Part shown: positions 1,636 to 14,346 of the stretch, piece by piece | Numbering within the stretch: the first letter of the stretch is position 1 | Layout: every line of letters begins with the position of its first letter | IMG/VR virus record: IMGVR_UViG_3300006793_000320 | Span: 1 to 22,238 of that record | DNA: 22,238 bases | DNA from: a virus | Strand: one strand, 5' to 3' | Notes under the pieces: model-generated | The model's input: the letters and a program-made list of their open reading frames with translations, nothing else | Databases searched by the model: none | Told to the model about the DNA's origin: nothing | Position numbers and translations under genes: made by a program

Positions 1636-2805
1636 TCAAGCACTTAGGTCCCTCACCTTGCCGTGTGCGCCATAGAACAGTTGCCATAGGTTGCCCATCG
1701 TGTGGAACATTCCCATTTGACCTAGACGGTTGATACCGAATGGGTCTCCTGTCTCAATGCCTGATTCGTGATAGAGAGTTGGTTTTGCAGTGCAGAAGTA
1801 GGTGTAATCAGTATCCATGTAGTATAGACGGCTGATTCCTGCTCCTCCTTCGTTGTGAACATCCTTAGAAGGAATAAGAGGCACACCGTTGTATGTAGCA
1901 ACGATAAACCCTGCCTCCATACCCGGAACACCTTTCACGCCGTTGACACCCGGAACAACTTTCTTCATTTCAGTGAAGCGTTGTTGAGGTTGTAGCAACT
2001 GTTGAATCTTCTCAAGAGTATCGTATCCAGTCATGATGACCTTTGGTTGTCCACCACGCTCCCAAATGTTGCGGAACATGCCATCGAGGATGTTCAGTGT
2101 AAGTGGGCGTTCATCACCATTGGTTCCCGCATCAACATTTGCATCAGACCATTCTTGCGTTGCCGCTTCAGGTCGGCTGATGTTGTATTGGTCGTGGTCG
2201 CCTGCCGATACATCGCCAAAGGTTGAAGCCTTCTCGATCTTAGCGGATGAAGTAATACGGTCAATAGAGTCAAAGTCATTCAATGTGGTGCTACGGTAGG
2301 AAATATCCTTTAGAAGCATTTTGTTGATGGTTTCAGCGTGGTGCTTGGCCATCTCCATTTTCATGACAGCACGAGCATCACCAAGACCGTCATCCTTGTC
2401 AGCAAGGAACATTGCGGTTTCAGTGAGGTCAAAGGTGTGAGCCACTGTGCGTGGTTTGTCATTGACATGCAAGAAAGTTGGTTTGCTTGTTTCAGGCAGT
2501 GTTGCGTTTTCAGGAACGCCGCCACCCTTGCTAGAATCAGGCTTGCCAGTGACGACTCGCCATCCACTCTTTTCCCATGGTTTCTTTGGCATGATTGAAA
2601 ATGCGTTAAACTCTTGGTTCAACTGTGACCAAACCTTACGGCCAAAAATAGCCTGATAGGTTCCGCTTGTAGTGGACATCAATGGAGAGTCAGCCTTCAA
2701 TAGGTCTGTTCCGCTGTATGCCCATGCGTTGTTTCCTGCTCCTGCACCGTAATACAGTCGCTCCATGTCTTCAATTGTTCGTAGGTATCCTCGTGATCCG
2801 CTCAT
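1636..2805 (-). CDS. HK97-fold major capsid protein
   Basis: A 389-residue protein of the length expected for an HK97-type shell subunit, encoded directly after the protease-scaffold gene. Residues 1-40 form a flexible N-terminal arm ending in LLKAD (35-39). The core carries the usual pattern: a long-helix region rich in Met/His/Lys (about 140-170), a segment 'KVIMTGYDTLEKI', and a late strand-loop pattern 'NGVPLIPSKDV' seen in many HK97-like subunits. The ribosome binding site GGAGATGA is the best in the window, fitting high expression. The short arm lacks a large delta domain, in keeping with the separate scaffold-like tail on the protease. The LLKA site may be a maturation cleavage point (inference). 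Confidence 0.88.
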   Translation of the reverse strand: MSGSRGYLRTIEDMERLYYGAGAGNNAWAYSGTDLLKADSPLMSTTSGTYQAIFGRKVWSQLNQEFNAFSIMPKKPWEKSGWRVVTGKPDSSKGGGVPENATLPETSKPTFLHVNDKPRTVAHTFDLTETAMFLADKDDGLGDARAVMKMEMAKHHAETINKMLLKDISYRSTTLNDFDSIDRITSSAKIEKASTFGDVSAGDHDQYNISRPEAATQEWSDANVDAGTNGDERPLTLNILDGMFRNIWERGGQPKVIMTGYDTLEKIQQLLQPQQRFTEMKKVVPGVNGVKGVPGMEAGFIVATYNGVPLIPSKDVHNEGGAGISRLYYMDTDYTYFCTAKPTLYHESGIETGDPFGINRLGQMGMFHTMGNLWQLFYGAHGKVRDLSA

Positions 2806-2845: not shown

Positions 2846-4174
2846 TTATTCTCCTCTCAAGGCCCTCCGTGCCAAGTCTTCAGCCGCAAGCCATCCATCG
2901 ACACCATTGCCCATTGCGTTAAACTCGTCATGGGTTGGCACACGAACAGATGTTGTTGCAGGTTCAGCAACGACGGACTTCTGCAAGTCAGTGTTTTCTT
3001 GCTTCAATGAGGCAATCTCATTTCGCAGGGAGTTGATTTGTCCACCAAAGTCATTTTGCTTTTGGATGGCCAATGCATTTTCCGTTTCAGCATTGTAACG
3101 GTCTTTCCACTCTTTTTCAACAAGGGATTTGACTGCTTCTTCATCACGAATGGATGCGTAAGCGTGGTATCCTCGTTCAAGGGATTGAGGTGAAAGGTTC
3201 AAGCCGCCTTTGATAACCTGCTTGTTACCTGAAGGTGCATTCATCTTCATCGAGCCAGTTTGCTTGATGACATTCTGATTGCCGCTTGCTGATGGCAAAC
3301 TTGGGTAAGATGGTTCAGAAGCGGATTCTCCACTTCCTTCAGCATCTCCTTGACCACGGTGACTGTATCCGCCACTGCCTTCTTGGAGGTAAGCCTTCTC
3401 AAGACCGAAGTGGTTACGGAGGGAATCAAGGTTGACTCCACTCTCGTGAGCAAACTTCTCAAGCGTATCGATGTATGCAATTGCACTACTATCGGCATGT
3501 TGATCAGTCTTAACAACTGGTTCATTTGCTGGTTCTTCGTCTTCAATGTGCTTTAACACACGGCTTAGGCTGTCTCGTATTTCGCTCAATGCTTCATTAC
3601 TCATTTCTTGTTCACTTCCTGTATTGTCCATTTTAAGGATTGTATATCGGGCTTCCGGGTTGATGCCCTTTTTGCACAAGGTAATCTCGTGCAATTCTAA
3701 ATCGGTAATCTCCCTGTGTGTCCCATGTTCAGGGGTGGTTTTGGTTACACGGAATAACGCTTGACCACCGATAGAGAATGCTTTGAGGTCGCCACTGCGA
3801 ACCTGCTTTTGGACTTCACGAGCCTTTTGGATGTCGTCACGGACACGGCATACGACAAAGAGTCCATGCTCGTCCACTTCTGATTTCCAAACTCGTCCTT
3901 CCGAATCTGTATAATTGTCAACTACTTCACCGACTTGAATGCCGCTATGTGCTAGTTGAACATTTCTGAATGCCTTGTTACCCATAAACTTCGTGAATGC
4001 CTTTGACAATGCAGATGCTGGGATTCGATCACCCTGCTTGTCAACCATGTCCACACTTGCATATCCCGCAATGTATAGGTCACTACCTTCTGACGCTTTC
4101 AGAATAAAATCGCTTCCAACAGCCGAGAACCCTGCGGTTCTGACAGTAGGATTAGCCATTATACTGGTCGCCAT
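2846..4174 (-). CDS. Prohead protease fused to a coiled-coil scaffold-like domain
   Basis: A 442-residue protein. Residues about 30-185 match the HK97 prohead protease family (U35, herpesvirus-assemblin fold). 'YIAGYASVDMVDKQGD' opens the domain, His76 (in LAHSG) and Ser134 (in KAFSIGG) sit where the catalytic His and Ser are expected, and 'LELHEITLCKKGINPEA' closes it. Residues 190-340 are low-complexity. Residues 355-400 form a heptad-rich coiled coil (INSLRNEIASLKQEN), as in scaffolding proteins, so this is probably a protease-scaffold fusion that is processed inside the prohead. Hydrophobic-Lys sites occur at 23-27 (FILKA), 178-182 (TILKM), 302-304 (VIK) and 320-322 (VIK) and may be self-cleavage points (inference). 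The ATG lacks a ribosome binding site but lies about 26 bases from a TATA-like box, which suggests leaderless transcription; ATG 4159 is an alternative. Confidence 0.88.
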   Translation of the reverse strand: MATSIMANPTVRTAGFSAVGSDFILKASEGSDLYIAGYASVDMVDKQGDRIPASALSKAFTKFMGNKAFRNVQLAHSGIQVGEVVDNYTDSEGRVWKSEVDEHGLFVVCRVRDDIQKAREVQKQVRSGDLKAFSIGGQALFRVTKTTPEHGTHREITDLELHEITLCKKGINPEARYTILKMDNTGSEQEMSNEALSEIRDSLSRVLKHIEDEEPANEPVVKTDQHADSSAIAYIDTLEKFAHESGVNLDSLRNHFGLEKAYLQEGSGGYSHRGQGDAEGSGESASEPSYPSLPSASGNQNVIKQTGSMKMNAPSGNKQVIKGGLNLSPQSLERGYHAYASIRDEEAVKSLVEKEWKDRYNAETENALAIQKQNDFGGQINSLRNEIASLKQENTDLQKSVVAEPATTSVRVPTHDEFNAMGNGVDGWLAAEDLARRALRGE

Positions 4175-4256: not shown

Positions 4257-4469
4257 ATGTCAGACGAGGAACATGAATGCAGTATATGTGGTGGGGAGTT
4301 TAATGGTGAAAATGGACGACTGGCGTTCATTGGGGGTGTTTTAATCAAAATAGGACCGTGGTGCATATCTCCTATCATGGAGATGTTCAAAGACCAAATT
4401 ATTGGGGATTTCATAGAAGACCTCCCCGATGCACTTAGAATAGAGATTGAAAAACACTCAAGCGAGTAA
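4257..4469 (+). CDS. Small zinc-binding protein, only plus-strand gene
   Basis: A 70-residue acidic protein starting MSDEEHECSICGG. Cys8 and Cys11 form a CxxC knuckle; Cys36, in PWCISP, with His6 or another residue, could complete a single metal site, so this resembles the short zinc-finger proteins common in archaea and their viruses. The rest is a hydrophobic strand followed by an acidic amphipathic helix. ATG 4257 is chosen because the TATA-like box at 4228-4236 would start the mRNA there; in-frame ATGs at 4239 and 4245 would give up to 76 residues. It is divergent from the protease gene, and its 3' end overlaps the end of the 1161-residue gene by 12 bases. A regulatory or inserted accessory ('moron'-like) role is possible; the function is unknown. 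Confidence 0.65.
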   Translation: MSDEEHECSICGGEFNGENGRLAFIGGVLIKIGPWCISPIMEMFKDQIIGDFIEDLPDALRIEIEKHSSE

Positions 4470-7400
4470 TTCATCTTCTTCAAGTTGGTCAGTGGCTTCA
4501 ACCTTAGTCCTTACTTCTTCTTCAGTTGCCTGTGCTTGAGGAGTCCTCAATGGATAGGAGAGTTTGGCCCGACCCATTTCAATATCAATACTAGCGGGTC
4601 CGTCTTTCTGTGGGTCCATACTAATTTGCAGGTGGTATGGCTGTTCCACCTCCTCCTCCGGTTCTTCATCATTCAAATTAGACAAAGCACCTATTGTTGT
4701 AGCATCATCGTCGGTCAACTCCGTTGGACCTCTTGGTGCGGTAATATCTGCTTGCATTCCTGACCATGCGCCGCCATCAGGCGAAGCACCATTCATACGA
4801 GGATATACGAAGTTTTCAATGATGTCATCATCAATTGCCTCATTTACGGTCCACTTATCTCCCTCCTCGGTTCTTTCAACACCGTATTCAGGGCCAAAAA
4901 CCTCAATCATTTTAGGGGTCAACCCCTTGACAGCAGTGCATAACTCATCTGAAGTCATTGCTTCTTCAGCATCAGACAACGCCCTGCGTGCGTGAACCAT
5001 CATGTGAGACTTTTCTTCACGATCACCGCTGTCATCAAGTAATTCAGGCGCACGGAGAATCAAATCGTCTTCTGTATTGACACGCTTACGAGGTTTCTTT
5101 CTTTTAGAAGGGGCTGAATGTATTGCGGAATGTGTCCCGCCTGTTGTTGACGACACCGTGCCAGCACCACCAGCACCAGCACCAGCACCAGCACCACCGC
5201 CGCCAGCCGCACCTTCTTTCAATAAGGCAATAGCAACTGGACCCCATAGTTTCAGTTGAGTCCTCGCATGTTTCACTAGCGTGGTGGTTCCCCTATACAG
5301 GTCGATGTCCATAGCATGTCTGCCATTGAATTGACCTTTAACGATAACTGGCTCTAATAACCCCGGATACTCCAAAATGATGTCCTGTCCTTTCACCATT
5401 ACTTCAGGCAGTGGTCCATATGGGACTGTCTTAGCAATTTCTTCATCAGCAAAGTGAACCCATTTAGGGTGCATCTCTTTACCTTTGATAAAAGTCGAGG
5501 TGGCATCCCTAATCAACAAACCAGTGCCGCCCAATTCGTCCACTGCCTTTGCTAAACCATGCTCATCAGTAGTGATACATGAGTTTGGCATTGGGAAGTG
5601 AAGGTATTCATCTGAATGATAAAGTGTTCTTAGAGCGTTCAATCTGTCTTCTAAAGGCTCCATGTGAAGGTCTGTTCCTTTATGGACTAGGAGGTCAACC
5701 ACATTCAGTTTGTCTCCTTTCACATATGCATCAACCGTAAAGTCACCTTTACGCTCTTTCAATGCTTTTTTGACCTTTGATGGCAAGTCGATTGGGTCAA
5801 CTCTTTTACCCTCTTTCTTAACAAGCATTCTCTTACCTTCAGGCATTTTCTGAACAACCCACTCACCACTAAATCCTTTGATAGTGGATAGGTCATCTAA
5901 ATCGTAAACCGTGTGGGCTGGCTTGATCATCGTTTCAAACACACCAGTCGGCTCATAGTCATCCGCTTTTCGCAATGAACCTGTTTGAAGAGGTGCATAC
6001 CCGCTTTGATCAACTGAAGAGATTGCATTGATGTCCTTTGTTTTAGGCGATAACTTTGACATTGGACCCATGAGAGCAGGGGATATTGCCCTCACTAAAT
6101 CAGCATGAGCCGTTCTTTGGAGTATGTTGAAAGGGGCATCAGCAATGTTGTATGCGTATCCCTGTTGTTCCGGGTCATAACGCCATGTTAAGGTGGCGGG
6201 CATGTCATGCCCCCAAGCGTCAGTATCGCCACTCACATAAGTTGGGGGAACGATAGCATGGGAATCAGGGGAGACTGGCCCCACTGAACCCATAGTCGAA
6301 GACATTTCCGCATTCGGTGCTAGAGTTTTGTAGGACTCGCCCATTTGCATACGAAGTAATGAATGGTTTGCCGCCGCCGCTATTTGTTGAAGGTTGCCTC
6401 GACAAATAGTATGCATCATCTCATCATCAGAACCCATTGGATTCAAAACTTGAGGACCAAATTGAGCAATCACCTTTTGAGCATGTTGTTGCATAACACG
6501 AGACATATGACTGTTTGAGGCCCTAAAGTGTTCGTTATGATGACTCCAATAGTCATCAGTTGAAAACGGATGCTCCTCTCGCCCATAGCCGGTTCTAGGT
6601 CCCCCCATGTCGGTTTGAGCGGCTAATGCACGCCCTAGACTGGACATCATCAAAGCGTCATCGGGGACATCAATACGACCACCGCTCAATTCTGAAGGGT
6701 GTTCATGTAACCTGTTTGATGCCGCTGAATACATTGCGAGCCTCTTTTGATAATCATTGTCAGGGTCGAAGGTTGAACCCAATGCGGCCCTGCCGGGGTG
6801 GTCCGGCTCCATTTGATTAACAGCACTAGGAAAATGAGTCCCACCTTGATTAAACGAGCCAGCCTCTTCTAAGTCATGGTTGATCAGATGTTTATTCATC
6901 CAACCCCCATTGAATATATCAGGGTAAGACTGACTTAATATGCTATCCAATGAATCTATACTCCTGCCAACTCCCCCCCAATACTGGTATGGTTCCCAAT
7001 GATGGTAATTCATTGAAGGCTCGATACCTGACTCACTTGATACCCAAGGAGACATGTAATGCTGTAAGTCTCCCCCCGGATGTGGTTCTGTTGGCCCGTG
7101 TCTATCAGGGGACCTTTGCCACCAAGACGACATTGGCTTGAATCGTTCTCTCCAATTTCTCAATGCACGCCCCCAAGAGATGCCTGCCTTTTCTTGAAAT
7201 TGATTCTCTATTCGTTTTGCATCAGGCGAACCCTCTTCGGTCATTGCCATTTGTCCCATAAGGTCCATGAAATTACTACGCTGTCCTTCAGTAATCCATT
7301 CTAAACCAAACAACTGTGGCAACATGCCAAACGAGGTGGACAACTCCTGTCGCTTATTGTCGTGATATTCCTCATCGCTAAGGAATGAATTACGATTCCG

Positions 7401-7943
7401 ATCACGAGTATAAAGGTCATGTTGGCTCTCAATAGGCAGGCCTAGATAATTGACAACTGACATCTCACTGGTTGGGACCTTTGCTTTAGCCTTTTCATTT
7501 TCAGCCATGATTGGCAGTTGCTCAATAGAACGCATGATGTGATGAACATATTCAGGGTCTCCATGTGCCGCACCATGCAATAGAGGGTGGCTATTTGATT
7601 TCATGCCAAAGGGATGGTGTTCACCAAATGGGTTATCCTCCTTCGCCTGTGGCCAGTCTTGAGTATAATCGGTTGTAACCTTTGCATGACCTGAAAGGTA
7701 ATTCTTGAGGTTTTCAGGGATTACCATGCTAGTGGCCGAGACTGGGCTATTCAAATCACGCATCGAATATGCCGGTGTCGATTCAGCCACGGCTAATGTC
7801 GAAGCCAAAGCCTCATCTTCAGGCGTGGGCATACCCCCCTGCATTGCTTCGGTATAGGAGGGAATGTCAACATCCTTCAACAAAAGTATTGACAGGACGG
7901 TATCGGTTCTTTTGAGAATCAACTCTTCCTGTTCTTTAGACAT
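4458..7943 (-). CDS. Large virion-module protein with degenerate DNA-ligase-like domain
   Basis: A 1161-residue protein, with AAGGGGG before its ATG. Residues 1-650 are His/Met/Trp-rich with no recognised domain. Residues about 670-835 follow the order of an ATP-dependent DNA ligase nucleotidyltransferase domain: 'YDLDDL' lead-in, EWVVQKMPEGKRMLVKKEG (motif I region, Lys699), 'TVDAYV' (motif III, 736-741), 'VVDLLVHKGTDLHMEPLEDR' (IIIa, 748-767), TGLLIRDATSTF (IV, 807-818) and PKWVHF (V). Key acidic and lysine residues of motifs III-V are replaced, and motif I carries an extra residue, so activity is unlikely. Residues 845-905 may be an OB-like beta module. A Gly/Ala repeat (911-928), a basic patch KRKKPRKR and an acidic tail follow. 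The N-terminus has LILKR (8-12) and LLLKD (20-24). An internal or minor virion role is inferred from position. Confidence 0.8.
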   Translation of the reverse strand: MSKEQEELILKRTDTVLSILLLKDVDIPSYTEAMQGGMPTPEDEALASTLAVAESTPAYSMRDLNSPVSATSMVIPENLKNYLSGHAKVTTDYTQDWPQAKEDNPFGEHHPFGMKSNSHPLLHGAAHGDPEYVHHIMRSIEQLPIMAENEKAKAKVPTSEMSVVNYLGLPIESQHDLYTRDRNRNSFLSDEEYHDNKRQELSTSFGMLPQLFGLEWITEGQRSNFMDLMGQMAMTEEGSPDAKRIENQFQEKAGISWGRALRNWRERFKPMSSWWQRSPDRHGPTEPHPGGDLQHYMSPWVSSESGIEPSMNYHHWEPYQYWGGVGRSIDSLDSILSQSYPDIFNGGWMNKHLINHDLEEAGSFNQGGTHFPSAVNQMEPDHPGRAALGSTFDPDNDYQKRLAMYSAASNRLHEHPSELSGGRIDVPDDALMMSSLGRALAAQTDMGGPRTGYGREEHPFSTDDYWSHHNEHFRASNSHMSRVMQQHAQKVIAQFGPQVLNPMGSDDEMMHTICRGNLQQIAAAANHSLLRMQMGESYKTLAPNAEMSSTMGSVGPVSPDSHAIVPPTYVSGDTDAWGHDMPATLTWRYDPEQQGYAYNIADAPFNILQRTAHADLVRAISPALMGPMSKLSPKTKDINAISSVDQSGYAPLQTGSLRKADDYEPTGVFETMIKPAHTVYDLDDLSTIKGFSGEWVVQKMPEGKRMLVKKEGKRVDPIDLPSKVKKALKERKGDFTVDAYVKGDKLNVVDLLVHKGTDLHMEPLEDRLNALRTLYHSDEYLHFPMPNSCITTDEHGLAKAVDELGGTGLLIRDATSTFIKGKEMHPKWVHFADEEIAKTVPYGPLPEVMVKGQDIILEYPGLLEPVIVKGQFNGRHAMDIDLYRGTTTLVKHARTQLKLWGPVAIALLKEGAAGGGGAGAGAGAGGAGTVSSTTGGTHSAIHSAPSKRKKPRKRVNTEDDLILRAPELLDDSGDREEKSHMMVHARRALSDAEEAMTSDELCTAVKGLTPKMIEVFGPEYGVERTEEGDKWTVNEAIDDDIIENFVYPRMNGASPDGGAWSGMQADITAPRGPTELTDDDATTIGALSNLNDEEPEEEVEQPYHLQISMDPQKDGPASIDIEMGRAKLSYPLRTPQAQATEEEVRTKVEATDQLEEDELLA
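5168..5191. repeat. Four tandem copies of CACCAG within a coding region
   Basis: The hexamer encodes the alternating Gly-Ala linker (about residues 911-928) of the 1161-residue protein. It separates the ligase-like/beta module from the basic and acidic C-terminal tail and is likely a flexible spacer; such repeats expand and contract by slippage. Confidence 0.8.
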
Positions 7944-9685: not shown

Positions 9686-11518
9686 TTATCGTTGCCCCTT
9701 TGAACCGGCTCTCCGCTCGATTTGTTTGATTCTATCGTCAACCGCCCTCTCGCTCGATGACTTCATGTCTCTTTTGTCTCCCTTAGTGGATGACAAAGCC
9801 GCCTCACCGTCAACTCGTTTGATGTGGTCGGGGGATTGACCGCCGCCTGCTCTATCGCCCATTTGACTGTCGCCAATGGTTCTCAAAGAAGGGAGGTCAT
9901 TCGCCGCATTTACCGCCGCTGATTCAGGGATTACCATTGAACCCCCTCTATTCGGTGTAAACTCGGTTCGCTTGAATAACATTTCAGGGGTAATCTCCAA
10001 CTGTTCAACACTGGTCTGAACCGGACCTCCACCCTGCTGTCCACCCTGCTGTCCACCCTGCTGTTCAGCCGCCGCCGCTTGTTGAGCCGCCGCTACTTCT
10101 TGAGGGTCAGGTTGCTTGTAATCAAACTCTAGCATTTGGTTGTCCGTGCCGTCTCTTAGGTTAGCATCGAAACCTGCCTGCTTCATTTGCATCATGTTTC
10201 TAATCGCCATTTCATCTCGGCGTAGCGTCATGATTTCATCCTCTTCTTCGTGTGGACTCAAAGTCAAGGTCCACTCGCTGATCGTAAATGCCTCCATCAA
10301 TGCGGGGAATAGAACCGTATTGTAAATGGATTGCGAATAAGCAACTGACCTGTTACTGACCACGATTTGCATACCTTCATTGTTTAAGCCTCCACCTGAA
10401 ACATCGTTCATGAATACATTTGAAACACCAAAGAATGCGGCTATTCGCTGACGGATGTCATCCTTGATTGGGATATACTGCAACTCTTCTAAAGTGTCCA
10501 TCATACGGACATATTCAAGACCGCCTCTTCCTGATTCGGTTTCAACACCAACAGTCGGAATGTAATTTGGGTCTCTTTCAAGATGCTCTTGGATATTGCG
10601 TGCTGTTCTCTCAACTGTTTCAAGGTTCGATGATTTGATGACCATCACACCACGAGGCATCCTTCGCTTCTGATATGCGGAATAGACATAGTTGTCCATT
10701 GCGATTAAGGTGTTTACCTGCCTCCACATTGTAGCAATTGGGCTACGGCCATAGAGTTTAGAAGGAGACCATTTACTTACATGAATGATTTCGTCATCAG
10801 TGTAAACTTGACCTGAACCGACTCCTGCTAGGTTCATGTAATGAATCGGGACAACGGCCATTCCTGTTTTAGGACACTTCGCATCTTTGTCAGTGGTTCT
10901 AAAGGACCGATCAACAAGACTGGTGAATTGACGGCCACCACGAACACCACGCTTATCTGAAACAATACGCATGAAAATAGGGTCGGCACGAGTAACCTCT
11001 TTGATTCGATAAAATTGAGGTTTCTTAGTCGCAGGGTCAATGAAGTATTCCTTTGTCAAAACAATATATGCGTCATCAACAATGTTCAAATCCATTTCGA
11101 TTTCACGAAGGACTTCAATGAATGACTGCTTCATTCGGTTACTATCGTTAAGAATCAAGTCGGCGTATTCAAGTTGCTCTTTATCGGGGGGCCTGACCTC
11201 GCCCCCGCACATTTCACAGGACTCAACCTGTTGCTGATATTGTTCATCACATTCCCTGCATTTAACAACAAACTTTGGCTTCCATGCCCAGCCTTTTCTG
11301 AATGTTTCAACATTCAAATGATTTAGAATTGAGCGAAGGACTACACACTCGTATGCCGCCGCATAGAGAGCGGGGATTGTAATTCCTTGAAGCAAAGGTG
11401 GTTCCTGAACACCACTTGTAAACAGCGGCATGGCAGGGACCGGCGTGGTATGGCGTTCCATGTCAACGCCAATAGCCGAGAATAACCTTTGCATACGCTT
11501 TGAGTTTTCATTGGCCAT
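9686..11518 (-). CDS. Portal protein with N-terminal zinc ribbon
   Basis: A 610-residue protein starting MANENSKRMQ, with GGAGG nine bases before ATG 11518. Portal hallmarks are a clip/wing/stem-like layout, the segment 'YGRSPIATMWRQVNTLIAMDNY' (a typical portal signature near the middle), 'IKDDIRQRIAAFFGVSNVF' and a following helix. Portals form the dodecameric DNA channel at one capsid vertex and dock the terminase during packaging. Cys87, Cys90, Cys101 and Cys104 form a CxxC-x10-CxxC zinc ribbon near the N-terminus. The C-terminus has an Ala/Gln-rich linker with QQGG repeats, then a polar tail. The start overlaps the end of the preceding gene by 11 bases. Length is within the upper range for portals. 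Confidence 0.87.
   Translation of the reverse strand: MANENSKRMQRLFSAIGVDMERHTTPVPAMPLFTSGVQEPPLLQGITIPALYAAAYECVVLRSILNHLNVETFRKGWAWKPKFVVKCRECDEQYQQQVESCEMCGGEVRPPDKEQLEYADLILNDSNRMKQSFIEVLREIEMDLNIVDDAYIVLTKEYFIDPATKKPQFYRIKEVTRADPIFMRIVSDKRGVRGGRQFTSLVDRSFRTTDKDAKCPKTGMAVVPIHYMNLAGVGSGQVYTDDEIIHVSKWSPSKLYGRSPIATMWRQVNTLIAMDNYVYSAYQKRRMPRGVMVIKSSNLETVERTARNIQEHLERDPNYIPTVGVETESGRGGLEYVRMMDTLEELQYIPIKDDIRQRIAAFFGVSNVFMNDVSGGGLNNEGMQIVVSNRSVAYSQSIYNTVLFPALMEAFTISEWTLTLSPHEEEDEIMTLRRDEMAIRNMMQMKQAGFDANLRDGTDNQMLEFDYKQPDPQEVAAAQQAAAAEQQGGQQGGQQGGGPVQTSVEQLEITPEMLFKRTEFTPNRGGSMVIPESAAVNAANDLPSLRTIGDSQMGDRAGGGQSPDHIKRVDGEAALSSTKGDKRDMKSSSERAVDDRIKQIERRAGSKGQR
10029..10064. repeat. Three perfect 12-base tandem repeats in the portal gene
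   Basis: CCACCCTGCTGT is repeated three times exactly and encodes the GQQGGQQGG linker of the portal C-terminal region. The copies have no spacers, so this is a coding minisatellite and not a CRISPR array. Confidence 0.9.
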
Positions 11519-12938
11519 CAGCAACAACCTCCTTTAGAACCTGATCGAATGTCTCAATGGACCAATTCCATGCTTTCATCATTTCCATTTGTTTCGTGGG
11601 CAATGCGTAATTGAATGCTAAAACTTTCTGTGCGTTTTCATCGCCGTCTAAGGATTTCTTCATAATGACCGCATCCTGCTTCTTTTCGTTCATCGAAGGT
11701 ATTGCCCATTCTAAGGCTTTACGGACAGCAAAGTCCCCCTCAATAATCAAAGATGAACCCTCCGCCCTAACATTCCTGACACCCATCTCACTCTTAACAG
11801 CGTTGGCATAGGACGGGGCGTTCAGACTAGAAAATTGCATTGTAAGCCGTGGTTCACCACGAGGTCCAATGCCTAATTCTCCGCTAGTGTCTAGCAATGA
11901 ACCGACGAGCCTGCCAACATTCTTGATTAGAATATCAGGACGGTCTATGTCATAAAACAAACTTCTTTCATCGGCTCTTGTTCCTTGGCCCGCCGTGATT
12001 ATATCAAACAAAAAACCATGAGATTTGATGAGTTTTGCTATTTCTTTAGAAGGAGATGATACTCCATATGACTGTAAGGTTTGAGCATTCATCGGACCTC
12101 TTTCATACATCACACTCGCACACCGCTCTAAAACTGCATTTTCACGAGATGAAAGCCTTGATGATTTATCAATTCGATTCCGCCATATGTTATGCGCTCG
12201 TTCCTTTTGAGCGTCATCGCTAGAAGATGTCCAAGCCTTGACTAATTGTAAAAACGGTATTTTTAGACGGTCAAGGTTCTTGTTTAACTGTTCATAGTCC
12301 TTATCATTCAATGGCAATTCATTTACAATATCGGGGTTTACTCCCTCGTAATACTTGACAATGGCTTTTCGTTCTTCGATAATTAGTGGTTGCATTGACT
12401 CTAGTGCGTCAAACCTCTCGGCTTTGATCAGAATATCTGTAACCTTTGCACTACTCATGCCAAAGTTATCCTGAAAGTAAGAGCGTGTTATTGGCACTTC
12501 GGCTTGAAGAGGAGGAGGTGCTTCAACCCCGTCCGACTCTCCCGGTGCAGACCCGCTCAAATTATTTTTCATACCCCTTACTCCGACATCGGTCCGAGGA
12601 CCGCCTAGATTCTCCGGTTCTATTGAATCCAATAATGCTTGTCCATCATCAACCGGCTCACCCGGCATTTCAGGTTCAGGCGTTGGGATGTCATCAATGA
12701 CTGGCTGTTCAACCGTTGCTTCTTGTTCCTCGGCGGTTGCTAATTCCTCTTCGGCTTGTCGCTGTTCAGAAGAAGTGTCCTTGACTTTTTTTCTTGCTTC
12801 ATTCAGCAATGCGCTACCCATACCCGCCACCTGTTGACCACGGCCATAGGGGTTATCCTGTCGCTGATTAGGATTAAACTTCAATATAGAATCAACAATA
12901 CATTCGACTCCGATTACTGCTTCTATTCGATCACGCAC
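11508..12938 (-). CDS. Protein with winged-helix and degenerate LAGLIDADG-like domain
   Basis: A 476-residue protein between terminase and portal. The GTG at 12938 is preferred because GGGGTGG precedes it and it overlaps the terminase stop by 8 bases; ATG 12974 would add 12 residues without a ribosome binding site. Residues 40-145 are acidic, Pro-rich and disordered, and include ALLDSIEPE, a motif shared with the 155-residue protein. Residues 150-265 are helical (with DILIKAERFDALE). Residues 270-330 look like a winged helix (VMYERGPMNAQTLQSYGV, then EIAKLIKSHGFLFDI). Residues 340-427 follow LAGLIDADG homing-endonuclease order: VGSLLDTSGELGI, 'PRLTMQFSS', 'SLIIEGDFAVRKALEWAIPSM' and 'KK'. The catalytic acid of the signature is Ser, so cleavage is unlikely. 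A DNA-binding role in packaging is inferred. Confidence 0.75.
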   Translation of the reverse strand: MRDRIEAVIGVECIVDSILKFNPNQRQDNPYGRGQQVAGMGSALLNEARKKVKDTSSEQRQAEEELATAEEQEATVEQPVIDDIPTPEPEMPGEPVDDGQALLDSIEPENLGGPRTDVGVRGMKNNLSGSAPGESDGVEAPPPLQAEVPITRSYFQDNFGMSSAKVTDILIKAERFDALESMQPLIIEERKAIVKYYEGVNPDIVNELPLNDKDYEQLNKNLDRLKIPFLQLVKAWTSSSDDAQKERAHNIWRNRIDKSSRLSSRENAVLERCASVMYERGPMNAQTLQSYGVSSPSKEIAKLIKSHGFLFDIITAGQGTRADERSLFYDIDRPDILIKNVGRLVGSLLDTSGELGIGPRGEPRLTMQFSSLNAPSYANAVKSEMGVRNVRAEGSSLIIEGDFAVRKALEWAIPSMNEKKQDAVIMKKSLDGDENAQKVLAFNYALPTKQMEMMKAWNWSIETFDQVLKEVVADGQ

Positions 12939-14346
12939 TTTGCCACCCCAGTCTCTTACTCCATGTGTCGGCATCAAGGATTACAATGTTATCCCTATAC
13001 TCTTTTGTTGCTTGAACAGACAAAGCGAGCGCAATGACCATATCGTCGTGTGCGCCTAAACTCTCCATCCTGCCATTCTCAAGCATGGTAAATGTTGACA
13101 ATTCAGTGATAAGGTTGTTCATGTGCCTCAATGTCGAGCCTTGGTCCTTGTAAGGAATCGCTAAATGCCCTTGTTCAAAGTGTAACTGCAATGTATGAAT
13201 TAACGCTTCTTTCTTCATACGGCTCATATTGAACGGTTTGATTGGTAAATCGCTAATCTCTTTTAATACTTGATTGAATGCTACTGCAAAGTTGTTTGTC
13301 TCTAATTCGATAATAACTGGGTTAAATCGTGCATTCAATTCAATGATTTTATCAATCTGACTACTGAAGTCCATCCCCTTTTCATGATGGGTGTGAATCA
13401 CTCTCTTATGCCTGTTCTCATCCATAGCGATGACCATCATGCAGGTGTAATCCGCTTTTCTGTTTGCACTGATAGCAGGGTCCCAGCCAATGTAGTAATT
13501 GAAATGTTCATCGGGGTCGGGGTAATATGAGAGGGATAATGAATCGTCCTTTGCGTTTGCGATCATCTCTTCAGGGAATAGGCTCTCTTCACTGGATAGT
13601 GGTTGACATAGGTATTCACGGGTAAATGCAATAGAAGTCATCTCATTGCGTCTTGAGTTTAATGCGTCTATGTTCCACCGTTCAGGCCATAGGGGGTCGC
13701 CAGTCTTTTCGTTGATTGCCGGATACTCCCTGACTTCATACCCCTTGAGTCCTTTCAATTCAGCATAAAGGTCTGTGAAAGAGAACGGAGTCCCAACTAT
13801 GCACAACTGTGCGGTGTGGTGAAGAACAGGCAATAGTGCGGTGTAAAACCATTGAGCGACGGACTTCAATTGAGTTGCCGCTTCACTGGATAAAATATCG
13901 TCAAGCACTACAATATCAGGGTGCGCTCCACGAACCGCTTTGCCAACAGACATTGCCCGAATAGAAGACTTGTTTGTCATTTTGAACAATTGCTTCGCCC
14001 ATCCACGCTTCGGTTTTAGGTGCTGTAAAGCGGGGGTCATCATAATCAATTCATCCATTTTCGCCATGTGGTCAATGGATTGATGTTGACTGTGTGAAAA
14101 GAATAGGACTTCTGTTCCGGGGTTGTATGCCATTTTCCAAAGAAGGTAAACACGATAGAACACAGACTTGCCGTGGTCTCGTGATGCAATAACGCAGGTT
14201 TTGTTATGTCCCTCCGACATCTCATACCATTCTTTGTGAAAGTGTGCTAACTGAAATCCGCATATGTCTTCAAAGAAGTATTTGAAATCACGGCGACCCA
14301 TCTCATAATCGACTTTTCCGGTTAAGTCGAGCAGGGGGTTACTCAT
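12931..14346 (-). CDS. terL: Terminase large subunit
   Basis: A 471-residue packaging motor protein, normal length for the family. The N-terminal ATPase has a Walker A-like motif SRDHGKS (55-61), Walker B 'DIVVLDD' (144-150) followed by the catalytic-Glu region ILSSE, and the coupling motif VGTPF (184-188). The C-terminal RNase H-like nuclease has Asp289 (GWDPA), Glu347/349 (IIELETNN) and Asp434/435 (GAHDDM), the metal-binding acids that cut concatemeric DNA. It would pump DNA through the portal. The ATG overlaps the preceding TGA by four bases and has GGGGTGAT upstream. No small terminase subunit is recognisable next to it; one of the unknown upstream genes might fill that role. Confidence 0.93.
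   Translation of the reverse strand: MSNPLLDLTGKVDYEMGRRDFKYFFEDICGFQLAHFHKEWYEMSEGHNKTCVIASRDHGKSVFYRVYLLWKMAYNPGTEVLFFSHSQHQSIDHMAKMDELIMMTPALQHLKPKRGWAKQLFKMTNKSSIRAMSVGKAVRGAHPDIVVLDDILSSEAATQLKSVAQWFYTALLPVLHHTAQLCIVGTPFSFTDLYAELKGLKGYEVREYPAINEKTGDPLWPERWNIDALNSRRNEMTSIAFTREYLCQPLSSEESLFPEEMIANAKDDSLSLSYYPDPDEHFNYYIGWDPAISANRKADYTCMMVIAMDENRHKRVIHTHHEKGMDFSSQIDKIIELNARFNPVIIELETNNFAVAFNQVLKEISDLPIKPFNMSRMKKEALIHTLQLHFEQGHLAIPYKDQGSTLRHMNNLITELSTFTMLENGRMESLGAHDDMVIALALSVQATKEYRDNIVILDADTWSKRLGWQSA

What the first reader, a model, noticed from the sequence alone, without database searches (positions are those of the whole stretch)
5439..5933. A decayed DNA-ligase-type nucleotidyltransferase domain inside a 1161-residue virion-module protein
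Seen: residues 670-835 keep the order and spacing of ATP-dependent ligase motifs I, III, IIIa, IV and V, and the IIIa segment (DLLVHKGTDL, then PLEDRLNALRTLY) is especially close. Known: active ligases need KxDG, an acidic Glu in motif III, EG in motif IV and Lys in motif V. Here motif I reads KMPEG, motif III is DAYV, motif IV is TG and motif V is WVHF. Inference: a pseudoenzyme kept for its DNA- or nick-binding shape, or a structural reuse, sits between head genes rather than with replication genes.
Basis: partly seen in the sequence, partly recalled or inferred. Interest (0 to 1): 0.78.

Follow-up and report, generated by a model that had tools for sequence, protein, structure and literature searches.

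The report
Dead ligase fold in head-module protein
A large protein encoded among the head-building genes of ocean viruses that infect Poseidoniales archaea contains a DNA-ligase-shaped domain that has lost the ligase's working residues in every relative examined but is still tightly conserved, so the "ATP-dependent DNA ligase" credited to these viruses in the literature is probably a non-enzymatic structural or binding module.

Summary
Residues ~660-912 of the 1161-aa ORF (4458-7943, minus strand) form a covalent-nucleotidyltransferase domain. AlphaFold plus Foldseek gives DNA ligases as the five best solved structures (best E 4.8e-9, probability 1.00) and almost only ligases and capping enzymes below. 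Sequence-only evidence is marginal: Pfam DNA_ligase_A_M never passes its cut-off, but 11 of 16 relatives match it (best 5.7e-4).

The catalytic set is lost family-wide: none of 65 distinct domains has KxDG, none of 60 has the motif III Glu, and one has the motif V Lys. The domain is not decaying: dN/dS is about 0.02, and TerL-p489-portal-[this]-protease-MCP order is never contradicted.

Host link: a Poseidoniales single-cell genome contig. In about 30 related virus records no intact ligase was found. A published read placed a magrovirus "ATP-dependent DNA ligase" gene beside the prohead protease, so the literature's magroviral ligase is very probably this pseudoenzyme. Best reading: a non-catalytic module of a minor head or assembly protein. 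Its ligand is unknown, and nick binding is untested.

The parts
4458..7943 (-). 1161-aa minor head / assembly protein carrying the ligase-like domain
   Evidence: homologues in about 80 virus contigs; gene order TerL-p489-portal-this-protease-MCP never contradicted
5208..5966 (-). Ligase-like (covalent nucleotidyltransferase fold) domain, residues ~660-912
   Evidence: AlphaFold pLDDT 81; Foldseek PDB top hits DNA ligases E 4.8e-9; Pfam PF01068 weak; dN/dS ~0.02
5829..5852 (-). Degenerate motif I, QKMPEGKR (residues 698-705); nucleophile position = Met700
   Evidence: residue 700 is K in 38, M in 20, V in 2 of 60; Gly703 60/60; Arg705 46/60
5724..5732 (-). Degenerate motif III, DAY (738-740); the ligase Glu is replaced
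   Evidence: Position 740 is Y 44, V 10, F 6 of 60; never Glu
5667..5699 (-). Motif IIIa-like segment VDLLVHKGTDL (749-759)
   Evidence: D750, L751, L752, H754, D758 invariant in 60/60
5505..5525 (-). Degenerate motif IV, TGLLIRD (807-813)
   Evidence: R812 and D813 invariant 60/60; position 808 D/E in 55 of 60 but Gly in the window
5451..5462 (-). Degenerate motif V, WVHF (828-831)
   Evidence: W828 60/60; the motif V Lys position (830) is Lys in 1/60
4689..4886 (-). Very conserved but mostly low-confidence (probably disordered) segment, residues ~1020-1085
   Evidence: Mean pairwise identity 0.73-0.81 over 1001-1080; pLDDT mostly ~30 beyond residue 1035
9686..11527 (-). Portal protein (context)
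   Evidence: PF04860 E 1.4e-13; PHROG 18178
12931..14346 (-). Terminase large subunit (context)
   Evidence: PF17289 E 1.8e-10; PHROG 38
2846..4174 (-). Prohead serine protease S78 (context)
   Evidence: PF04586 E 2.6e-10
1636..2805 (-). Major capsid protein (context)
   Evidence: PHROG 24667 E 8.5e-44; PF17236; HCTV-1-type MCP relatives

Best explanation
A pseudoenzyme: a ligase-type nucleotidyltransferase fold embedded in a ~1150-aa protein that belongs to the head/packaging gene set of tailed viruses of Poseidoniales archaea. Shown: the predicted fold, loss of the ligase catalytic set in all relatives, strong purifying selection, fixed place between portal and prohead protease/MCP, and no other detectable ligase gene in about 30 related virus records. 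Inferred: it does no ligation; the domain serves as a rigid binding or structural module of a minor head or assembly protein, most likely holding a protein partner or nucleic acid near the portal during head assembly or genome packaging. The partner is not identified.
For: Fold. Family-level Pfam matches. Catalytic residues: no KxDG in 65 domains, no motif III Glu and one motif V Lys in 60; nucleophile position K in 38, M in 20, V in 2 of 60, and R in one further relative, with at least three changes on the tree. Constraint: dN/dS 0.020-0.021 versus 0.045-0.051 for residues 1-640 in the same pairs. Gene order: 106 loci (some from the same contig), no contradictory order. No other ligase: PF01068, PF01653, PF09414.
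Against: Presence in the virion is inferred from gene position only. Sequence-only homology to ligases is marginal. Model coordinates were not inspected, so the pocket is unseen. Residues R812, D813, S816, K820, H825 and W828 are invariant and could form a different active site. The virus records may be incomplete, so a missing ligase gene is not proven.
Confidence: 0.68

Rival explanations
1. Nick- or DNA-end-binding pseudoligase: the domain keeps the ligase's DNA-facing surface and holds genome ends or nicks at the portal during packaging or ejection.
For: Ligase fold; place next to portal and terminase genes; residues 690-735 positively charged in all 60 domains (+2 to +11).
Against: Whole domain net negative in every relative (-1 to -20); no DNA-binding domain of full-length ligases detected; no experiment.
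Confidence: 0.25
2. Still an active ATP-dependent DNA ligase with unusual residues, as the published annotation implies.
For: Annotated as ATP-dependent DNA ligase in the magrovirus literature (PMC7318539, PMC10160649, PMC10768690, PMC12999244); no other ligase gene found.
Against: No KxDG in 65 domains, no motif III Glu, motif V Lys in one of 60; 22 of 60 domains including the window lack a Lys at the nucleophile position.
Confidence: 0.05
3. A different covalent or nucleotide-binding chemistry (for example protein NMPylation, or nucleotide sensing) using the new invariant residues.
For: A consistent invariant set unlike ligases: H754, D758, D766, R767, R812, D813, S816, K820, H825, W828.
Against: Neither Lys699 nor Lys700 is universal (Q/V in L016 and L017; S/R in L172); I know of no family with this set.
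Confidence: 0.1
4. An internal virion protein ejected into the host with the genome, the fold acting inside the cell.
For: Large protein beside the portal; HCTV-1 has a 1210-aa zeta-toxin-domain protein (E 7.5e-20) in the same region of the head cluster.
Against: No sequence similarity to that HCTV-1 protein; no proteomic evidence; catalytic residues absent.
Confidence: 0.15

Closest known systems
ATP-dependent DNA ligases (PF01068; archaeal Lig of Thermococcus and Pyrococcus, 4eq5 and 2cfm)
   Same: Nucleotidyltransferase fold, order of motifs I-III-IIIa-IV-V, FDLLY..G.DL-like and PLxxR-like segments
   Different: No KxDG, no motif III Glu, motif IV EG not conserved, no motif V Lys; shorter between motifs I and IIIa; embedded in a head-module protein
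Magroviral 'ATP-dependent DNA ligase' of published annotations (group A magrovirus contig_156409; Aoguangviridae; Apasviridae)
   Same: Very probably the same gene: a published read covered a ligase gene together with the prohead protease gene (PMC7318539), the order seen here
   Different: Published as part of the replication machinery; here found to lack the catalytic residues and to lie in the head module. The reference records themselves were not available
Snurportin-1 cap-binding domain (non-catalytic guanylyltransferase-like fold; identity of 3nc0_E recalled from memory)
   Same: Same superfamily fold apparently reused for binding without catalysis
   Different: Eukaryotic nuclear-import adaptor that binds RNA caps; no evolutionary link proposed
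HCTV-1 gp109 (zeta-toxin-domain protein, Druskaviridae)
   Same: Giant protein with a nucleotide-enzyme-type domain between portal and protease/MCP in a related head module
   Different: P-loop kinase-type domain, not a ligase fold; no detectable sequence similarity

Membership tests
ATP-dependent DNA ligase (covalent nucleotidyltransferase) | Nucleotidyltransferase fold | tested here: met
   AlphaFold model and Foldseek, DNA ligases E 4.8e-9, probability 1.00
ATP-dependent DNA ligase (covalent nucleotidyltransferase) | Motif I KxDG with the nucleophilic lysine | tested here: not met
   0 of 65 domains have KxDG; window has MPEG at the register
ATP-dependent DNA ligase (covalent nucleotidyltransferase) | Motif III glutamate | tested here: not met
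   Tyr, Val or Phe in 60 of 60
ATP-dependent DNA ligase (covalent nucleotidyltransferase) | Motif IV Glu-Gly | tested here: inconclusive
   No EG in any of 65; an acidic residue at position 808 in 55 of 60; register uncertain
ATP-dependent DNA ligase (covalent nucleotidyltransferase) | Motif V lysine | tested here: not met
   Lys in 1 of 60; mostly Leu, Arg, His in the rest
ATP-dependent DNA ligase (covalent nucleotidyltransferase) | Passes the curated Pfam PF01068 cut-off | tested here: not met
   15.7 bits for the domain against 26.2; no virus record over cut-off
ATP-dependent DNA ligase (covalent nucleotidyltransferase) | C-terminal OB domain | tested here: inconclusive
   Four strands and two helices follow the core; coordinates not available to identify them
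ATP-dependent DNA ligase (covalent nucleotidyltransferase) | Nick sealing with ATP | not testable with these tools
   Needs a bench assay
Tailed viruses of Poseidoniales (magroviruses and kin) | Caudoviricetes head module of the halovirus/magrovirus type | tested here: met
   TerL, portal, S78 protease, MCP related to Druskaviridae
Tailed viruses of Poseidoniales (magroviruses and kin) | Poseidoniales host | tested here: inconclusive
   A relative lies in a 106-kb contig of a Ca. Poseidoniales single-cell genome (L124); indirect for the window itself
Tailed viruses of Poseidoniales (magroviruses and kin) | Family B DNA polymerase (magroviruses in the strict sense) | tested here: not met
   No PF00136 match in the 97-kb record matching the window; present in 3 of 15 records, all more distant relatives. 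The record may be incomplete

The most novel reading that the evidence does not exclude
The 'ATP-dependent DNA ligase' that gives magroviruses a supposedly near-complete replisome is a dead ligase fold fixed as a conserved head-module component, so these viruses carry no ligase of their own and depend on the host's to seal their genomes.
Probability: 0.6. Interest if true: 0.62.

Novelty: new variant of a known kind. Interest (0 to 1): 0.55.

Why it matters
It probably corrects a repeated annotation: ICTV profiles and magrovirus surveys list an ATP-dependent DNA ligase among the replication genes of these abundant ocean viruses. If it is a dead head-module protein, their dependence on the host differs from what is stated, and a nucleotidyltransferase fold has been reused in a capsid-building gene set, which can be tested directly by expression and structure.

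Tried and rejected
Sequence-only searches of PDB (phmmer, profile): nothing significant. hhalign of the domain alignment with two types of ATP-ligase from archaeal genomes of the host's class: probability under 1 percent, both alignments shallow, although one search places IIIa-V in the expected register. A 9-sequence ligase HMM did not separate real from shuffled domains. tblastn in annotated phages: no relative of the window protein; for a distant relative only chance hits. Similarity to HCTV-1 head proteins by profile: none; the weak gp111 hit looks like chance. Separate ligase genes of ATP, NAD or RNA-ligase type in related viruses: none. Published magrovirus and Poseidoniales virus reference records OR863078, PP497040 and ON649702 are not held; Philosof 2017 and Prabhu 2025 are not held. 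Artefact (broken or chimeric ORF) rejected: intact ORFs across about 80 contigs. BFVD top hit A0A516LT18 (827 aa, E 9.7e-11) has no name and could not be fetched.

Full report
What was checked. The window is a 22,238-base virus record. A 97,368-base IMG/VR record (G002) matches it almost exactly: 10 of 11 sampled 60-base words spaced along the window are found in it, in order. All main genes run on the minus strand. In transcription order they include TerL (12931-14346), a 489-aa protein, the portal (9686-11527), four small proteins, the 1161-aa protein (4458-7943), an S78 prohead protease (2846-4174) and a major capsid protein (1636-2805).

Is there a ligase-type domain? Pfam DNA_ligase_A_M aligns with residues 745-828 but below its cut-off; 11 of 16 family members hit the same model, best 5.7e-4, and no other model is hit by more than two. 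Sequence searches of PDB and hhalign with shallow ligase alignments are not significant, and a home-made ligase HMM does not separate real from shuffled domains. The structure prediction is what decides: with a 60-sequence alignment and no templates the domain models at mean pLDDT 81, and Foldseek ranks five archaeal DNA ligases first (4eq5 E 4.8e-9, probability 1.00), followed almost entirely by other ligases and capping enzymes. The full-length model gives the same answer, and named viral matches are mostly DNA ligases and capping enzymes. TM-scores of 0.38-0.50 with large rmsd suggest that the part after the core is oriented differently from ligases; coordinates could not be inspected.

Is it active? 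In 60 distinct domains the motif III glutamate is Tyr, Val or Phe without exception, and the motif V lysine is present once. Motif I needs a correction: the ungapped match to ligases (GDWVVQKKPEGKRV with GESCFEWKYDGLRV) places residue 700 at the nucleophile. It is Met in the window, Lys in 38, Met in 20 and Val in 2 of 60; one further relative has Arg (L172). No KxDG occurs in 65 domains. On a 41-sequence tree the residue-700 letter needs at least three changes for Lys. Ligase activity by the standard chemistry is therefore very unlikely.

Is it decaying? No. Between the window and its closest relatives dN/dS is 0.020-0.021 in the domain against 0.045-0.051 in residues 1-640 (dS is near saturation in the second pair). 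Residues 761-800 are among the most conserved of the protein. An invariant set, partly unlike ligases, is kept: H754, D758, D766, R767, R812, D813, S816, F818, K820, H825, W828.

Context and distribution. About 80 IMG/VR contigs carry the protein. Across 106 loci (several from the same contig) the order TerL-p489-portal-[this]-protease-MCP is never contradicted; I take the missing genes to lie beyond contig ends. One relative lies in a 106-kb contig of a Candidatus Poseidoniales single-cell assembly, which points to the host. Most long relatives have no family B polymerase match; a deeper clade does.

The literature ligase. Magrovirus papers and ICTV profiles list an ATP-dependent DNA ligase among replication genes (PMC10160649; PMC12999244; PMC10768690). 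[quoted passage not shown] In about 30 virus records no PF01068 match passes the cut-off, and every weak match reported with its open frame lies in the 1085-1185-aa protein. This includes polymerase-bearing records of 96 and 101 kb: both carry the protein, the 96-kb record has no ligase match outside it, and the 101-kb record has no PF01068 match at all. NAD-ligase and RNA-ligase models find nothing in the records searched. I infer that the published ligase is this pseudoenzyme; the annotated records themselves were not available, and fragments cannot prove absence.

How it may work. The gene's fixed place suggests a minor head or assembly protein. The N-terminal 640 residues are mostly confidently modelled and mostly helical but match nothing known; residues 914-960 and 1035-1109 are probably disordered, with a very conserved stretch at about 1020-1085. 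The ligase-like domain is net negative (mean -7), with only residues 690-735 positive, which does not favour a DNA clamp but does not exclude local DNA contact. The related halovirus HCTV-1 has a 1210-aa zeta-toxin-domain protein in the corresponding region, hinting that this locus accommodates large proteins with nucleotide-enzyme folds. I therefore commit to a non-catalytic binding or structural module, with the partner unknown.

Novelty. Ligase-type folds without catalysis have precedents (snurportin-1, recalled from memory; a chain of a snurportin-containing complex, 3nc0_E, appears). A conserved one in a tailed-virus head module, apparently mistaken for a replication ligase, is a new variant of a known kind.

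Noticed in passing
L118 (G002 85715-95162, minus strand), and window N-termini at 7943, 17633, 18642, 20533: Seven short proteins of the 97-kb relative match FDx[AL]WxLLK at their start (mostly M(T/S)AFDxAW) and two more are similar; [ILV][ILV]K lies within the first 22 residues of 22 of 92 ORFs against 5.9 expected. Several window head-module proteins share it (ELILKR, VLLLKAEG, LILKARE, FLIIKGEG). Possibly a shared targeting or propeptide signal.
   Followed up: partly
4689-4886 (residues ~1020-1085 of the 1161-aa protein): One of the most conserved stretches (WTVNEAIDDDIIEN..PRMN..SPDGGAWSGMQADITAPRGPTEL) is mostly predicted with very low confidence, as if disordered until bound to a partner.
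   Followed up: no
L122 8672-12304 (HCTV-1 gp109): A 1210-aa protein with a zeta-toxin domain (PF06414, E 7.5e-20) and a GPPGAGKG P-loop sits between the gpF-like gene and the protease/MCP of a related halovirus.
   Followed up: partly
L131-L142 (genomes of the class of G020): Twelve of 60 genomes carry a ~460-aa ATP-ligase-like protein with K(F/Y/H)(D/N)G as motif I, and 42 of 60 have no PF01068 match at all.
   Followed up: no
L114 2156-3799 and G002 93103-93996 (in L118): The 97-kb relative encodes a chaperonin of the TCP-1/cpn60 family (PF00118 E 2.8e-154) and, by eye, an HMG-CoA-lyase-like protein; chaperonin and HMG-CoA lyase are also listed for Aoguangviridae.
   Followed up: partly
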